This document shows positions 3,747 through 20,986 of a stretch of DNA of 34,046 bases, piece after piece. The number at the start of each line of letters is the position of its first letter. Within the stretch, counting starts at the first letter, position 1. The position numbers and the translations under genes were made by a program. Source of the DNA: Spirochaetes bacterium GWB1_27_13. GTDB taxonomy: Bacteria; Spirochaetota; GWE2-31-10; MWDO01. Under the pieces are notes generated by a model. That model worked only from the letters and a program-made list of their open reading frames with translations, ran no database searches and was not told the DNA's origin. The stretch lies in NCBI GenBank assembly GCA_001829125.1, contig MIAN01000172.1, forward strand, positions 6,634 through 40,679, read 5' to 3'.

Positions 3747-4592
3747 ATGAAAATTGAAAAATTAAATGGTTCTCTTTCGTTGACTAACGATAATTTTTTA
3801 TCTTTATTTTTTGTTGGGGTAGGTAGTGCATTCTCAAAAAAACATAACCAAACCAATTTATTGGCAATCAAAGGTCAAGATCACATCTTAATTGACTGCG
3901 GGACAAAATGTGGGCAGGCTCTATATAATTATGGGTCGGCATTGGCTAATATAAAAAATTATCTTGTTACACACACACATGCAGACCATATCGGTAGCCT
4001 CGAAGAAGCAGCTTTAATGAGTCGCTATGTTGCAAAAAAAAAGCCAAAGATGATAATAACAGAGACGTTCCAGCATATACTTTGGGATATGTGTCTAAGA
4101 GGTGGTTCTGCTTACGGTGAAGAAACTATGGGACAAATGCTAACTTTTGAAGCATTTTGGGAAATAGAACGACCAAAAATTCTTATTGAATTTGAAAGAG
4201 AAACATATCAGAGTAATATAGGAAATTTAGATATAAAAATTGTAAGAACAATGCACATTCCAGACAAATCTGTAAGTTATAAGGACTCTTTTTGGAGTTG
4301 TGGGCTAATTTTTGATAATAAGGTTTTATTTACAGGAGATACAAGATTTGACTTAGATTTAATTATGAGTTATGATAAAAAATTTAATTTTCAAGCAATT
4401 TTTCATGATTGTCAACTTTTTACAGGTGGAGTTCATTCTTCAATAGAAGAGTTAAATACTTTACCAGCAGAAATTAAAAAGAAAGTTTATCTTGTTCATT
4501 ATGGCGATAATTGGGAGCAATTTGAACCTAAAGTAAAAGAATATGGATTTGGTGGATTTACTCAAGAGGGCGTTTATTATTGTTTCGATTAA
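3747..4592 (+). CDS. MBL-fold metallohydrolase (RNase Z / PhnP-like)
   Basis: THTHADHIGSLEEA metal-binding motif, TGDTRFD, GGVHSS, HYGDN. Confidence 0.88.
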   Translation: MKIEKLNGSLSLTNDNFLSLFFVGVGSAFSKKHNQTNLLAIKGQDHILIDCGTKCGQALYNYGSALANIKNYLVTHTHADHIGSLEEAALMSRYVAKKKPKMIITETFQHILWDMCLRGGSAYGEETMGQMLTFEAFWEIERPKILIEFERETYQSNIGNLDIKIVRTMHIPDKSVSYKDSFWSCGLIFDNKVLFTGDTRFDLDLIMSYDKKFNFQAIFHDCQLFTGGVHSSIEELNTLPAEIKKKVYLVHYGDNWEQFEPKVKEYGFGGFTQEGVYYCFD

Positions 4593-14258: not shown

Positions 14259-14829
14259 AACTAATCGCTTTACCAAGTGTCAGACTATCAGAGTATTCAA
14301 GACTTCCACCCATAGGAATCCCAGTTGCAATTCTTGAGCGTTTTATATTAAATTTTGAAAGAATATTATTCAAATACAAAAAAGTAGCTTCACCTTCTAT
14401 TGTTGGATTTGTGGCAATTAATACTTCGCTAAAATTTCCTTTTTTTATCCGCTCAACAAGTTCGTTTATTTTAAGTTTATCAGGGTTTACACCATCCAAT
14501 GGATTTATACTACCCATTAAAATATGATATAAACCCTTATAGCAGCCAGTCTCTTCTATTGCAAGTAAGTCTTTTGGTTCTTCAACAACACAGAGCATCG
14601 ATTGATCCCGCGAATAATCCTCACATATAGAACAAACATCCTTCGTTGTAAAATTTCCACATATAGAACAAAAATTTATATTACTTATAACATCTTCTAT
14701 TATATGAGAAATTTCTAACGCAATATGTTTATTCTTCAAAAGAAAATAAGATAACCGTTGAGCACTTTTTTTACCTACACCGGGTAATTTTGTCAAAATA
14801 GTTATAATATCATTTATTTCATTCATCAA
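14242..14829 (-). CDS. recR: recombination protein RecR
   Basis: LTKLPGVGKKSAQRLSYFLL, CSICGNFTTKDVCSICEDYSRD zinc finger, VVEEPKDLLAIEETGCYKGLYHILMGSINPLDG Toprim. Confidence 0.97.
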   Translation of the reverse strand: MMNEINDIITILTKLPGVGKKSAQRLSYFLLKNKHIALEISHIIEDVISNINFCSICGNFTTKDVCSICEDYSRDQSMLCVVEEPKDLLAIEETGCYKGLYHILMGSINPLDGVNPDKLKINELVERIKKGNFSEVLIATNPTIEGEATFLYLNNILSKFNIKRSRIATGIPMGGSLEYSDSLTLGKAISSKHYL

Positions 14830-15128
14830 AAAAGTCCGGGTATCAAATTAGTTGAAAACTTTCTTTGTATCTCTTGTCTCATTTTTGCAACAGCATCATT
14901 TTGAGCTAATATAATTAAGTCTCTAAAAGTTGGAATATCATTTCTAATAAAATCATTATCTTCATATTCTATCGAAATAATTGTAAACTCCCCATTGATT
15001 GTAACTTTAACAAATCCACTACCAGCTTCGCCAGTAACAGTAATTTCTTTCAATCGTGAAACCATCTCATCACTTTTCTTTTTTAACTCTTCAATATTCA
15101 AATTTTTTAGTAAATCTAAAGGATTCAT
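14826..15128 (-). CDS. ybaB: YbaB/EbfC-family nucleoid-associated protein
   Basis: MNPLDLLKNLNIEELKKKSDEM...VTGEAGSGFVKVTINGEFTIISIEYED...LKNDAVAKM-type pattern; ATG 15128 with SD AAGGAGAAATAAAA; ATGA overlap with recR. Confidence 0.92.
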   Translation of the reverse strand: MNPLDLLKNLNIEELKKKSDEMVSRLKEITVTGEAGSGFVKVTINGEFTIISIEYEDNDFIRNDIPTFRDLIILAQNDAVAKMRQEIQRKFSTNLIPGLF

Positions 15129-15256
15129 TTTTATTTCTCCTTGAAATATCGTTGGAAAAAACATAATCAATAATAAAAATCTTTACGATTATTATTATAA
15201 CAAAAAATAGCATTGTTTTCAAGTATAGATTTATATTTTTGGGGGGAGGGAGGAAA

Positions 15257-18200
15257 TTATAAATCAATATATCTAACATTATTATAAAAAGTAGCCTCTT
15301 TCTTTTTTTGCCACTCTTCTATAATATCATCTTTAACGCCCCATTCTTTTAAAACTTTTGCTATTCTTACCAATTTTTCAAATATATAAGAAATATCATA
15401 GTTTATTAATTCTTCCAAATTTTTATAAGAATTTAAAATTAATTTGTATTCTTCAATAAAATTTTTAATCTCTGGATTATCTTTATGCCTTTCTAATATA
15501 TAACAAAAGTAATCTAAGCCAGCCTCCAATTTCGGTTCTTTTTTGAATATTATTTTATTTATTAGAAGTTTATAATCATTAATATATCTTTTATCAAAAT
15601 CATAAAAACCAAAATTTAACTCATCATAAGCCATAATTACTGTTTTTTCATTATCAGATAATAAACCATTTGTTATATTATCAAAACCAGTAATCTCTTT
15701 ATATATTCTTTTTAGTTCTTCATAAGTTGAAACATAATCGTTTCTTGATTGTAAAAATTCTCTTTCTTCATCTAAAAATCGAAGCATTTCTTGGATTAAA
15801 CTATAATTATGGAATTCAAAATCATCAAGATGGATTTTTTCTAATTTATTTATTTTTTTTATTATATCTAAGAGTTTATCATATATTTTATTAATTTCTT
15901 CATTACTCCATTCTAAACCATTTTGAAAATCTATTGATTTCTTTGTTATTTTATAAGGAAAAATATAGTATACTCCATAATGATAATAGATGCATCTTTT
16001 CGCTTCTTCAGATATATCAAAACCTGTATCCCACAAATCTTTTTCATTTAATAGATTTTCTTTTATTTTATTATGAATATTTTTGTCAGATTTTGAAAAA
16101 TATAGTAAGTAATAGAATATTTCTCTATAATTCTTAGAATTTAATAAATCATTTATTTTTAAATATATTTTTTCTTTTTGGTTTTCATCTAAATATTTAT
16201 AAAATAAATTTATTTTTTTAAAATATATATATGGATTATTTTCTAAATTATCTATAAGGTAATCCAATTTCTTATTTATATCATTTTCTATTAATCTTAT
16301 ATTTTTATTATTTAGAATGTGATTTATAAATTCTGTCTTGACCTCATCATTTTCTTTTAATTTGATAAAGTCCTCTATTAGATTTATTAATAATTCTTTC
16401 TCTTCTATATGTACTAATGATTTTTCTACAAAACTTATTAAATATTTTTTATTATAATTATTATCTTCTGTATATAATTGTACTTCATTATTTTTTATTA
16501 ATTTCCAAAACTCATTAAAGAAATTTTTCCATTCATTATAAGGTAGAGTATTAAATAATGAAGTAATTATTACTATAAAATCTTTTCTTAATTCTTTTTT
16601 TTCATTATAATAATACCAAAAGTTTTTTTCTACAATTTTAAATAAATCCAATAATTGTTTATTATCTTTTTGTATTTTAATTATTTCTTCCATAATTTTT
16701 TCAAATAAATCAAAATCACTAGAATATTGTTTGTAATATTGTAAAGTTAAAAATAAAGATAAATAAAAAAGGTCTTTCTCAAAGTATATATTTTTAAAAT
16801 TGGTAAACCATTCTTCTTCTTTAATATTAATAAGCATATTTGAATTAAAAGGAAAACCAGATTCAAAAGACAATTTAATTAATCTTATTGTATCCATTAA
16901 TCTTTTTGTTTCATCATTTAAACCTAAGTTATGGGAGAATGAAATCAAATGTCGTTTTTTTTCAGATGGTTTAATATCCTCTTTTTTTTCTTCTTTTTTT
17001 AGATTTCCAAACAAATCACTTATTTTTATAAGATTATATTGTCTTAAATGGTTTCTTTTATTAAAATAAATATCTTTCATATTCTCATCATATTTTCTAT
17101 GAAAAAAAGGAACAAATTCATAAAACCATAATTGTTCAGATATAGGTTTATTATCAATATTTTTCTCTAATTCTTCTAATAATTCTAAAGATTTTTTATA
17201 GTATATTGGTATTTTAGTGTAACTCATTAATCCAATTTTTTTTATAACCCAACTAAAATTTAAATCAATATTTTCTTCTGGTTTCCAGTTATCAATACAT
17301 TCTATAAGATTTTTATAGTCAAGATTTATTGCGTAAAATAACAATTTATAGTAAGTTAATTTGTGTTTTTCTTCATTATCGAGATTTTTAGTGTTTAATC
17401 TATCAAAATATAGGCTAAATTTATATTTTTCATTTAATATCAAATTATTATCAAGTAAAACAAATAAAAATGAATGATATTCCTTCTTTTCTTCATTATC
17501 CAACAAATTATAATCTATTGTATCAAATATTTCTGTTAATTTATTAATCTCTTTTTCATCTATTGATAAACAAATTGGTAATAAATTAAAATTTATCAAA
17601 AAAGAAATTAGCCCAAAATATTTTAATTTATATTGACTATCAACAAAATCATATTTTCTTGTCAAATTTGATAATGAATATTTGCAGTAATCTCTTACAT
17701 CACTTCTATAATTTAATCTATTATGATAATATAATTTTTTCAATCTTTCATAATCTTTAATAACATTATCAATAGCAAAAACTTGTTCTTTAGTTTTATT
17801 ATAAATTGATTTCATTAAATTTATAAATTCTTCTTTATTTTCTTCATATAGAAATAAAAATAAATTTTCAAAAGATATTTTTATCTTTTCAGAGTATTGT
17901 ATTTTAGAAGAAATGTTATTTGATGATTTGTTTAAGAAATTAAATATTTCATCCTCTAATAAACAAATTCTTTGTATCCCCATATTTTTATACCACAATC
18001 CCAACTCTTCTGAAATTGGTTTGTTATCTATATCAATAAGATATATTTTAGGCTCTTTATTTTCATTTTTAATTAATATATCTTGTACCCAATTGACCCA
18101 AGACGTAAAATTAGGGTCATTGCCAGAAAAACCAACTAGCATAAATTTTTCTTGTAGTAATGCGATTCTCATCAATTGAGTAAATGCCTCATGTTTTTTT

Positions 18201-18862
18201 GGATATTCTTCATAATCTTCTTTAGAGATAATATACTGAGTATATCTATCATTATCAAATCCATATTCTTCTTTTCTATCTTCTTTTCTAAGAGTTCCAT
18301 GAACTTTTATTATTCTATTTTTATTTCCAATTGAAAGATCAGAAGAATTTAATATAGCATCTTTTTCATATTTGTAATTTATTTCTTCATTTGCCTGTTC
18401 TAATAAGGTATCATAATTTGTCGTATAAACATTATTCCAGTTTAATAAAAGTAATTCTTTATGAATTTTTAATTCTTCTTCATTACATTTATCTATTTTC
18501 TGAAATTTATTTTCTATATAAATACTAATTGCTTCTTTTCTACCTTTTAGTTTTATATATTTGGATACTATTTCTAAATAACCTTCTCTTTGAATAATTT
18601 TCTTTACTGCATTTTCTTCAAATTTTTCCTTACTAATTTCTTCTTCATTATTTTGTTTATTTCTATAATTTAAATATCTAAAATATTTTTCTTCTATTTC
18701 ATCCTCATATAATTCTAAAACCATATCATACAAAAGTTCATCCCATGATGGAAATTCTTTTTTAGCATTTTTACTAAACCCAGCACCAATCATTACAGAC
18801 ATTTTCCCAGATATAAGTTCTTTCTTTAAATTTTCAAGTATTTCTATTTTTTCAGAGGACAT
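15257..18862 (-). CDS. SIR2-domain protein with ~880-aa helical C-terminal region (defence-associated sirtuin-like)
   Basis: SVMIGAGFSKNAKKEFPSWDELL, NVYTTNYDTLLEQA, IIKVHGTL, FMLVGFSGNDPNFTSWVNWV are NAD-binding/catalytic motifs of the bacterial SIR2-like family; SD AAAAGGAGAAATAA before ATG. Confidence 0.88.
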   Translation of the reverse strand: MSSEKIEILENLKKELISGKMSVMIGAGFSKNAKKEFPSWDELLYDMVLELYEDEIEEKYFRYLNYRNKQNNEEEISKEKFEENAVKKIIQREGYLEIVSKYIKLKGRKEAISIYIENKFQKIDKCNEEELKIHKELLLLNWNNVYTTNYDTLLEQANEEINYKYEKDAILNSSDLSIGNKNRIIKVHGTLRKEDRKEEYGFDNDRYTQYIISKEDYEEYPKKHEAFTQLMRIALLQEKFMLVGFSGNDPNFTSWVNWVQDILIKNENKEPKIYLIDIDNKPISEELGLWYKNMGIQRICLLEDEIFNFLNKSSNNISSKIQYSEKIKISFENLFLFLYEENKEEFINLMKSIYNKTKEQVFAIDNVIKDYERLKKLYYHNRLNYRSDVRDYCKYSLSNLTRKYDFVDSQYKLKYFGLISFLINFNLLPICLSIDEKEINKLTEIFDTIDYNLLDNEEKKEYHSFLFVLLDNNLILNEKYKFSLYFDRLNTKNLDNEEKHKLTYYKLLFYAINLDYKNLIECIDNWKPEENIDLNFSWVIKKIGLMSYTKIPIYYKKSLELLEELEKNIDNKPISEQLWFYEFVPFFHRKYDENMKDIYFNKRNHLRQYNLIKISDLFGNLKKEEKKEDIKPSEKKRHLISFSHNLGLNDETKRLMDTIRLIKLSFESGFPFNSNMLINIKEEEWFTNFKNIYFEKDLFYLSLFLTLQYYKQYSSDFDLFEKIMEEIIKIQKDNKQLLDLFKIVEKNFWYYYNEKKELRKDFIVIITSLFNTLPYNEWKNFFNEFWKLIKNNEVQLYTEDNNYNKKYLISFVEKSLVHIEEKELLINLIEDFIKLKENDEVKTEFINHILNNKNIRLIENDINKKLDYLIDNLENNPYIYFKKINLFYKYLDENQKEKIYLKINDLLNSKNYREIFYYLLYFSKSDKNIHNKIKENLLNEKDLWDTGFDISEEAKRCIYYHYGVYYIFPYKITKKSIDFQNGLEWSNEEINKIYDKLLDIIKKINKLEKIHLDDFEFHNYSLIQEMLRFLDEEREFLQSRNDYVSTYEELKRIYKEITGFDNITNGLLSDNEKTVIMAYDELNFGFYDFDKRYINDYKLLINKIIFKKEPKLEAGLDYFCYILERHKDNPEIKNFIEEYKLILNSYKNLEELINYDISYIFEKLVRIAKVLKEWGVKDDIIEEWQKKKEATFYNNVRYIDL

Positions 18863-18994
18863 TTATTTCTCCTTTTAATATAAAGAAAACAATGATTATA
18901 TTTTAATACAAAAAATAAATAAATTCAAATTTGATTTATATTTTCCAGAAGGGCAGGGGTTTACATTTTTTTTAAACAAATAATAAAACAATAA

Positions 18995-20569
18995 TCAATA
19001 CATCTCTTTCCCATTAAATATTTCTTTTACTCTCGAAGCATTTATTTCTCCGACAGTTTTTGGTCTTTGTTGTTTTAATTCGGGTTTGTATTCTACTTTT
19101 ATATTGTATTCTTTGCCTATTATTAAAGAAGCTTCTTTAGTGAGCAAATCATTATATTTTAATGCAGTGTCATAATACATCTGATGACAAAAATATAGTA
19201 TCATTGTATTACCTTGTTCTTCAATAGAAAACACATTATTTAAAGCAGCGATTAATTGAAAATTTGTGTGAGGTATATTATTTTTTATAATTTTTAAAAT
19301 TTCGCTTTTTTCAACATTCACTTTAACATTGACATTTTTTTGTGACGGTTGTTCTTGTTGAATAGGCTGAATATTTTCTTCTTCTATAATCGTTGCAGGA
19401 ATTGACATCGTCATTTTTTGATTAGGATTAATTAATTGATTTCTTATTTTTTCGAGTTCGAGTAGAATTGCTTTTGGTCTAATTAATTCTTTATACTTAA
19501 GCAATTTTAAAAGACATATTTCTATTTCTGTTTGTATATCAATAGAATACCTTGTTTTTTCATAAGTACTAAAAAGTATTTCCAAAATATTCTCTAAGTC
19601 GTCATAAGAAAATGATGAAATGAGTTTATCATCATACACTTGTGAATTAAACCCAAATACTTTATTTGAAGAAAGATTTAATTTTTTTAACATTATGTTT
19701 CTAAAAAACTTTATCATTTCAGATATAATTTGCTCTGGAGAAATTCCTGTTTCTATTAAAGAAAAATATTCTTTTAATAAATCTTCTCTATCTTTGTTTA
19801 CAATAGTTCTTATTAGAATAGAAATTTTTTCTTCACCAACAATTCCAAGTTTTTCTTGAATTCTTTTTAGTGTAATATTAGCATCACAAAAAGAAATAAC
19901 TTGATCAAGTAAAGTATAAGAGTCCCTCATTGACCCTTTGCCTTCAGTGGCTATCCATTTTATCGCATCTTCTTCATATTTTACATTTTGTCTTTCAAGA
20001 ACTTTTATTAAGGACTTCGCAATTAATTCTTGTGGAATAAGTCTTAAATTAAATTGTTGACATCTTGATCTGATCGTCGGTAAAACTTTATTTATTTCTG
20101 TTGTAGCAAAAATAAAAACAACACCTTTTGGCGGTTCTTCAATTGTTTTGAGTAATGCGTTAAATGCACTTTTTGACAACATGTGAACTTCGTCAATTAT
20201 ATAGACTTTATATTTAGAATTTATTGGCGGATAGAGAATTTCTTCCTGAATTACCCTAATATCATTTATACTTGTATTTGATGCTCCATCTATTTCTATA
20301 ACATCAGAGTTACTTCCATTTGTTATAGAAACACAATTTTCACATTTATTACACGGGTTATCTGTCGGTCCATTTATACAATTTAATGCTTTTGCAATAA
20401 TTCTTGCGGTCGATGTTTTACCACACCCACGAGGACCACTTAACAAATAAGCATTAGGAATTCTTTTGTTTTGTATAGAATTTTTTAGTGTAGTAGAAAC
20501 AAATTCCTGTCCAATCACTTCATCAAATGACTGAGGTCTAAATTTAGTTGCTGTAATTTCGTATGACAT
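18995..20569 (-). CDS. dnaX: DNA polymerase III subunit gamma/tau
   Basis: YEITATKFRPQSFDEVIGQEFVSTTLKNSI, GPRGCGKTSTARIIAKALNC, CNKCENC zinc module, VYIIDEVHMLSKSAFNALLKTIEEPP, FIFATTEINKVLPTIRSRCQ. Confidence 0.97.
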   Translation of the reverse strand: MSYEITATKFRPQSFDEVIGQEFVSTTLKNSIQNKRIPNAYLLSGPRGCGKTSTARIIAKALNCINGPTDNPCNKCENCVSITNGSNSDVIEIDGASNTSINDIRVIQEEILYPPINSKYKVYIIDEVHMLSKSAFNALLKTIEEPPKGVVFIFATTEINKVLPTIRSRCQQFNLRLIPQELIAKSLIKVLERQNVKYEEDAIKWIATEGKGSMRDSYTLLDQVISFCDANITLKRIQEKLGIVGEEKISILIRTIVNKDREDLLKEYFSLIETGISPEQIISEMIKFFRNIMLKKLNLSSNKVFGFNSQVYDDKLISSFSYDDLENILEILFSTYEKTRYSIDIQTEIEICLLKLLKYKELIRPKAILLELEKIRNQLINPNQKMTMSIPATIIEEENIQPIQQEQPSQKNVNVKVNVEKSEILKIIKNNIPHTNFQLIAALNNVFSIEEQGNTMILYFCHQMYYDTALKYNDLLTKEASLIIGKEYNIKVEYKPELKQQRPKTVGEINASRVKEIFNGKEMY

Positions 20570-20862: not shown

Positions 20863-20986
20863 CCTCTTTAACTCCCTCTGAGCAGTTTAAGTACGATAAA
20901 CCTATACCTACCGTTGCTACCTTCCGGTCCTGGCGGGATTTGGAAAGTTTTAACTACTTAATACCCAAAGATCACCGCTAAAGAGG
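20863..20986 (-). ncRNA. ffs: signal recognition particle RNA (bacterial small type)
   Basis: Minus strand contains the domain IV apical sequence CCGCCAGGACCGGAAGGTAGCAACGG, upstream GGTGATCTTTGGG, and terminal pairing CCTCTTTA/TAAAGAGG. Confidence 0.93.

What the first reader, a model, noticed from the sequence alone, without database searches (positions are those of the whole stretch)
15129..18994. SIR2-domain gene inserted in the conserved ffs-dnaX-ybaB-recR locus
The order on the minus strand is tRNA-Ser cluster, SRP RNA, dnaX, SIR2 gene, ybaB, recR. From established knowledge, dnaX-ybaB-recR is one of the most conserved housekeeping strings in bacteria, often next to scr/ffs and tRNA-Ser. 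A 3.6-kb SIR2 gene here, co-directional and with its own SD, looks like an accessory gene that entered a core operon. Bacterial SIR2 proteins of this type (DSR1/DSR2, Thoeris ThsA, SIR2-pAgo) are NADases that act in abortive anti-phage defence. No integrase, IS or second defence gene is visible nearby, so it may be a single-gene system expressed partly through the dnaX operon. That it is defensive, and that it is recently acquired, is inference.
Basis: partly seen in the sequence, partly recalled or inferred. Interest (0 to 1): 0.75.

Follow-up and report, generated by a model that had tools for sequence, protein, structure and literature searches.

The report
DSR-type defence gene inserted beside dnaX
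A spirochaete carries, wedged between two normally adjacent housekeeping genes, an intact gene for a large predicted NAD+-destroying anti-phage protein related to the known DSR2 system but with its own sensing region, which is an unusual address for an otherwise recognisable kind of bacterial immunity gene.

Summary
On the minus strand the order is tRNA-Ser cluster, SRP RNA, dnaX, an intact 1201-aa SIR2 gene (15257-18862), ybaB, recR. In all 21 related genomes where dnaX and recR could be measured at one locus, the dnaX stop lies 312-414 nt from recR; here it is 4,165 nt. The gene is absent from every relative of the same family and order that is held, so it is an insertion into a core string. 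No integrase, transposase or duplicated target site was found.

The protein is a DSR-type NADase: an N-terminal SIR2 domain (catalytic N149/H188 intact; best solved fold DSR2) followed by an ~880-aa helical solenoid. It is not Dsr2 proper: it scores 142 bits against a curated cut-off of 1400, and its solenoid matches a small separate clade (Bacteroidota and four of 393 sampled spirochaete genomes), not the Dsr2 sensor. Relatives sit elsewhere beside restriction-modification genes, caspase-like proteins, a defence-type reverse transcriptase and integrases. Defence by NAD+ depletion is therefore likely; the trigger is unknown. The gene has its own promoter-like and Shine-Dalgarno sequences, so expression through the dnaX operon is unnecessary. 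'Recent' acquisition cannot be dated without same-genus genomes.

The parts
15257..18862 (-). SIR2-solenoid (DSR-type) gene, 1201 aa, intact
   Evidence: ORF; PF13289; PADLOC Dsr2 E=9e-36; AlphaFold model, whose first 50 PDB hits are all DSR2 chains
17933..18862 (-). SIR2 NADase domain, residues 1-310; N149 and H188 present
   Evidence: alignment to ThsA, family alignment, Foldseek to isolated DSR2 SIR2 parts TMt 0.74-0.80
15257..17899 (-). all-helical C-terminal solenoid, residues 322-1201, presumed sensor
   Evidence: clade-specific profile match E=3e-43 while the Dsr2-group profile gives no match to this part alone
18869..18874 (-). Shine-Dalgarno AAGGAG of the SIR2 gene
   Evidence: sequence
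18900..18928 (-). promoter-like TTGAAT-17-TAAAAT upstream of SIR2; the stretch recurs at other own-genome places of promoter-like make-up (TTGA..TATTTTTTG..TATAAT)
   Evidence: consensus match only
15194..15222 (-). promoter-like TTGAAA-17-TATAAT between SIR2 and ybaB, facing ybaB-recR
   Evidence: 11 of 12, one of the two best in 7 kb; consensus match only
15170..15198 (-). degenerate copy of hairpin 1 of a dispersed two-hairpin repeat of this genome
   Evidence: 4 mismatches in 25 to the consensus (0 of 300 shuffles reach this); 20 bits, E=0.15 with model R1
14826..15128 (-). ybaB/ebfC
   Evidence: PF02575
14242..14829 (-). recR
18995..20569 (-). dnaX
20873..20970 (-). bacterial small SRP RNA (ffs)
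   Evidence: RF00169
20993..21594 (-). tRNA cluster Ser(cga)-Arg(gcg)-Ser(gga)-Ser(gct)-Ser(tga)

Best explanation
The gene is a single-gene, DSR-type anti-phage effector that was inserted between dnaX and ybaB in this spirochaete lineage. In uninfected cells the SIR2 domain would be held inactive by its place in an oligomer and by the C-terminal alpha-solenoid (inferred from DSR2). During infection a phage product, not identified here, would bind the solenoid, release the SIR2 NADase, and deplete NAD+ so that the infected cell stops or dies before phage release. Shown here: the gene, its intact catalytic residues, its architecture, the empty site in relatives, its separate clade and the defence context of its relatives. 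Inferred: NADase activity, oligomeric gating, phage trigger and abortive outcome.
For: SIR2_2 domain. N149/H188 match the ThsA motif, whose N113/H153 correspond to DSR2 N133/H171 (PMC11087589), and mutating those DSR2 residues lowers NADase activity (PMC10981675). The first 50 PDB fold hits are all DSR2 chains. PADLOC Dsr2 E=9e-36. Empty site in 21 of 21 measurable relatives and no full-length homolog in the family or order. Clade members lie beside type I R-M hsdS (L048, L051), two caspase-domain proteins and an integrase (L057), a Drt4/Drt3b-like RT (L105) and RloB/AAA_21 (L103). True Dsr2 genes of the same phylum directly follow MmeI or IIG R-M genes.
Against: No activity data. The solenoid is not detectably homologous to the Dsr2 sensor, and modelled alone it matches generic HEAT-type solenoids rather than DSR2 (modest model, pLDDT 68). 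Here the gene has no defence neighbour. One relative (L060) has lost the catalytic His, so not every member need be an NADase.
Confidence: 0.75

Rival explanations
1. The gene belongs to a restriction-modification-coupled sub-type that acts as a second line when restriction is inhibited, and in this genome it works at a distance or has lost its partner.
For: In two other spirochaetes the clade's gene directly follows type I hsdS (4-nt overlap in L048, 3-nt gap in L051), and two Dsr2 genes directly follow MmeI or IIG enzymes. The genome has N6-methylase genes on other contigs.
Against: The closest clade members (L057, L103, L105) are not next to R-M genes, and neither is this copy. B. subtilis DSR2 is described as sensing phage tail tube protein directly, and no partner is mentioned (PMC10981675).
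Confidence: 0.12
2. The gene is a passenger without function in this host.
For: Related copies are broken in other spirochaetes (stops in L051, split in L052). The gene has the lowest GC of the 23 window genes measured (20.2%).
Against: An uninterrupted 1201-codon ORF with intact catalytic residues, SD and promoter-like sequence, and native-like codon usage.
Confidence: 0.1
3. The gene is an ancestral core gene of this string that was lost in relatives.
For: Other Spirochaetota carry clade members (4 of 393 sampled genomes, counting this one).
Against: The others lie at other loci. The family and order relatives lack the gene. Its nearest tree neighbours are Bacteroidota (98% SH-aLRT). It would need many independent losses with clean re-closure to gaps of about 10-75 nt.
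Confidence: 0.03
4. The position is an assembly artefact.
For: Draft assembly of 273 contigs; reads cannot be checked.
Against: One 40.7-kb contig with core genes on both sides, native-like codon usage, and spacers that share sequence features with the rest of the genome.
Confidence: 0.03

Closest known systems
DSR2 / Dsr2 (defence-associated sirtuin 2; B. subtilis DSR2, PDB 8wy8 and others; NCBIfam NF041819, PADLOC PDLC02184)
   Same: N-terminal SIR2 NADase domain with catalytic Asn/His, then a long helical C-terminal region in one polypeptide; best PDB fold match; PADLOC Dsr2 E=9e-36
   Different: 1201 aa against 1005 aa for B. subtilis DSR2; NCBIfam 142 bits against a cut-off of 1400; solenoid of a different clade; no evidence that it recognises tail tube protein; stand-alone between dnaX and ybaB
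Thoeris ThsA
   Same: Related SIR2 NADase domain (PDB 8wc0, E=5e-8)
   Different: No SLOG domain found and no ThsB/TIR gene recognised nearby
SIR2-HerA (Nezha)
   Same: SIR2-type NADase used against phage
   Different: No HerA partner recognised; a long solenoid in the same polypeptide instead
Uncurated SIR2-solenoid clade: L057 Sphingobacterium MAG, L103 Bacteroidales, L105 Alistipes, L047 and L060 spirochaetes
   Same: Homologous over the full length, including the solenoid (E=1e-131 to the clade profile)
   Different: Only 20-28% identical; other genomic sites; the three Bacteroidota members carry an insert of about 100 aa in the SIR2 domain

Membership tests
DSR2 | N-terminal SIR2 domain with catalytic Asn and His | tested here: met
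   PF13289; N149/H188; DSR2 SIR2 fold TMt 0.74-0.80
DSR2 | Single polypeptide with a long helical C-terminal region | tested here: met
   model pLDDT 74, helices from residue 322 to 1196
DSR2 | Passes the curated Dsr2 equivalog model NF041819 | tested here: not met
   142 bits against a cut-off of 1400; L050 passes with 1462, L071 scores 1249
DSR2 | C-terminal sensor homologous to that of Dsr2 | tested here: not met
   No profile match of residues 331-1201 to the Dsr2-group profile even at E<=1000, while the own clade gives E=3e-43; sensor model alone gives no DSR2 among the first 50 fold hits
DSR2 | Activation by phage tail tube protein, NAD+ hydrolysis, tetramer | not testable with these tools
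   needs biochemistry
Thoeris (ThsA) | SIR2 plus SLOG domain, with a ThsB TIR gene nearby | tested here: not met
   Only SIR2_2 in Pfam; no TIR domain in the neighbours scanned
SIR2-HerA (Nezha) | Adjacent HerA ATPase | tested here: not met
   Neighbours are dnaX and ybaB
SIR2-APAZ/pAgo (SPARSA) | APAZ domain and pAgo partner | tested here: not met
   No such hit in the protein or its neighbours
Avs5 | STAND NTPase domain in the same protein | tested here: not met
   No NTPase family hit

The most novel reading that the evidence does not exclude
The solenoid clade is a separate DSR type with a trigger other than tail tube protein, and in this spirochaete it has become a stand-alone cassette in the dnaX-recR replication/repair string, so that its level or sensing is tied to the state of replication or recombination (for example, guarding the DnaX/RecR machinery against phage takeover).
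Probability: 0.07. Interest if true: 0.7.

Novelty: new variant of a known kind. Interest (0 to 1): 0.42.

Why it matters
It marks a SIR2-solenoid clade that the curated Dsr2 equivalog model does not cover, and whose sensing region differs from the one structural work on DSR2 explains, so its trigger is open and testable. It also shows a defence gene alone inside one of the most conserved housekeeping strings, without an integrase or island around it, the sort of site that island-based searches would miss.

Tried and rejected
Target-site duplication at the junctions: the shared 10-12 nt words are at chance level for this AT-rich DNA. Foreign codon usage: not seen, although GC is the lowest of the genes measured. 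Carriage on phages or plasmids: only SIR2-domain matches covering at most 23% of the protein; viral contigs gave one weak SIR2-only match. One genome-contig scan with the single protein found nothing; the alignment scan found 50 relatives. Fold search against viral models: nothing meaningful. Literature on defence genes in dnaX-ybaB-recR: no paper holding all the search words in the held library.

Full report
Observation. The window is part of a 40.7-kb contig of a 4.4-Mb draft genome. Homologs found in genomes that the tool calls 'same phylum' lie on contigs named Treponema zioleckii, Spirochaetaceae bacterium and uncultured Spirochaetes bacterium, so the window belongs to Spirochaetota (inference from names). 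On the minus strand the order is tRNA-Ser/Arg/Ser/Ser/Ser, SRP RNA, dnaX, a 1201-codon SIR2 ORF, ybaB, recR. The SIR2 ORF is at 15257-18862. The spacers are 132 and 128 nt.

Empty site. recR was used to pull the locus from relatives. In 21 loci where dnaX was also found, the dnaX stop lies 312-414 nt from the recR start, against 4,165 nt here. In the nearest relatives with the string intact (G001, G004, G006, G007, G008) dnaX and ybaB are separated by roughly 10-75 nt. In one family member (G002) ybaB-recR is detached from dnaX and has no SIR2 gene. In another (G003) the contig ends inside recR. The SIR2 protein has no full-length match in 59 other relatives. No same-genus genome is held, so the insertion cannot be dated more closely than 'since the split from the other genera of the family'.

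Junctions. No target-site duplication beyond chance, and no transposase or integrase among the neighbours with a Pfam hit. Both spacers contain promoter-like sequences: TTGAAT-17-TAAAAT before SIR2 and TTGAAA-17-TATAAT before ybaB. The stretch before SIR2 recurs at other own-genome places of the same promoter-like make-up. SIR2 therefore probably has its own promoter, and ybaB-recR has one downstream of the insertion; this is consensus matching, not evidence of transcription. The spacer before ybaB also carries a degenerate half copy of a dispersed two-hairpin repeat. Whether the repeat helped the insertion is not known.

Protein. Pfam finds only SIR2_2. PADLOC gives Dsr2 E=9e-36, but the NCBIfam Dsr2 equivalog scores 142 bits against a cut-off of 1400. 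phmmer aligns the SIR2 part with ThsA through TTNYD and HG. The catalytic Asn is N149 and the His H188; both are conserved in the family except for an H-to-N change in L060. In DSR2 the corresponding N133 and H171 are needed for NADase activity (PMC10981675; correspondence with ThsA in PMC11087589). The AlphaFold model (mean pLDDT 74) shows a Rossmann SIR2 domain to about residue 310, then helices to the end. The first 50 PDB matches are all DSR2 chains: TM-scores of the full-length alignments are low (0.2-0.3), those to isolated DSR2 SIR2 parts are 0.74-0.80 of target. Residues 331-1201 modelled alone (pLDDT 68) match generic HEAT-type solenoids and no DSR2 among the first 50. So the effector is DSR2-like, while the sensor is only architecturally similar.

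Family. A tree of 42 long homologs puts the window protein with Bacteroidota proteins (Sphingobacterium, Bacteroidales, Alistipes; 98% SH-aLRT), then with two spirochaete proteins (100%), apart from Dsr2 and the Bacillota and Pseudomonadota groups. The solenoid part alone matches the clade profile at E=3e-43 and gives no match to the profiles of the other groups. Deep branches and skewed composition make the exact neighbours uncertain. In 393 Spirochaetota genomes the solenoid clade occurs in four, this one included.

Context of relatives. L048 and L051: directly after type I hsdS in hsdR-hsdM-hsdS loci. L057: beside two caspase-domain proteins, with an integrase 3 kb away. L105: beside a reverse transcriptase that resembles Drt4/Drt3b below cut-off, near an SF1 helicase. 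L103: near RloB/AAA_21 genes. The true Dsr2 genes L049 and L050 directly follow MmeI and IIG enzymes. These are selected examples, not a statistical enrichment test, but the pattern is what a defence family shows.

Mechanism. Most likely a one-protein sensor-NADase that depletes NAD+ on phage infection, by analogy with DSR2. The trigger cannot be inferred, because the sensor differs. A role coupled to restriction-modification, as suggested by operon position in relatives, is a live rival. A housekeeping role is unlikely given the absence in relatives.

Verdict.

Noticed in passing
own genome, e.g. G000:C155:8346-8475 (L168), G000:C9:3672-3801 (L172); half copy at window 15170-15198: A dispersed repeat of about 126-130 bp folding into two hairpins (TATAATGATAATCGTNCAGATTGTCATTATATACCTGAAATG...AAACATTTCAGTATATA; fold z = -4.5), with inverted-repeat-like ends, about 66 places at E<0.01; MITE- or REP-like. 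Not searched for in relatives.
   Followed up: partly
window 3747-4592 (+): Metallo-beta-lactamase-fold protein scoring 114.6 bits against Pfam Anti-Pycsar_Apyc1 (cut-off 50), on the chromosome, not in a recognised phage.
   Followed up: no
L060 7875-11468 (= L048), uncultured spirochaete: Otherwise full-length clade member with the catalytic SIR2 His replaced by Asn, directly after type I hsdS and before a KAP NTPase.
   Followed up: no
L051 9163-12753 (Treponema zioleckii) and L052 4224-7885: Broken copies: the L051 clade member has four in-frame stops, and the L052 SIR2-solenoid gene is split into three ORFs, suggesting repeated decay of such genes.
   Followed up: no
L054 (G002, same family): ybaB-recR is detached from dnaX in one family member; the string is rearranged there without any SIR2 gene.
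   Followed up: no
L057, L103, L105: The Bacteroidota members carry an insert of roughly 100 aa within the SIR2 domain, shown by the profile alignment; absent from the window protein.
   Followed up: no
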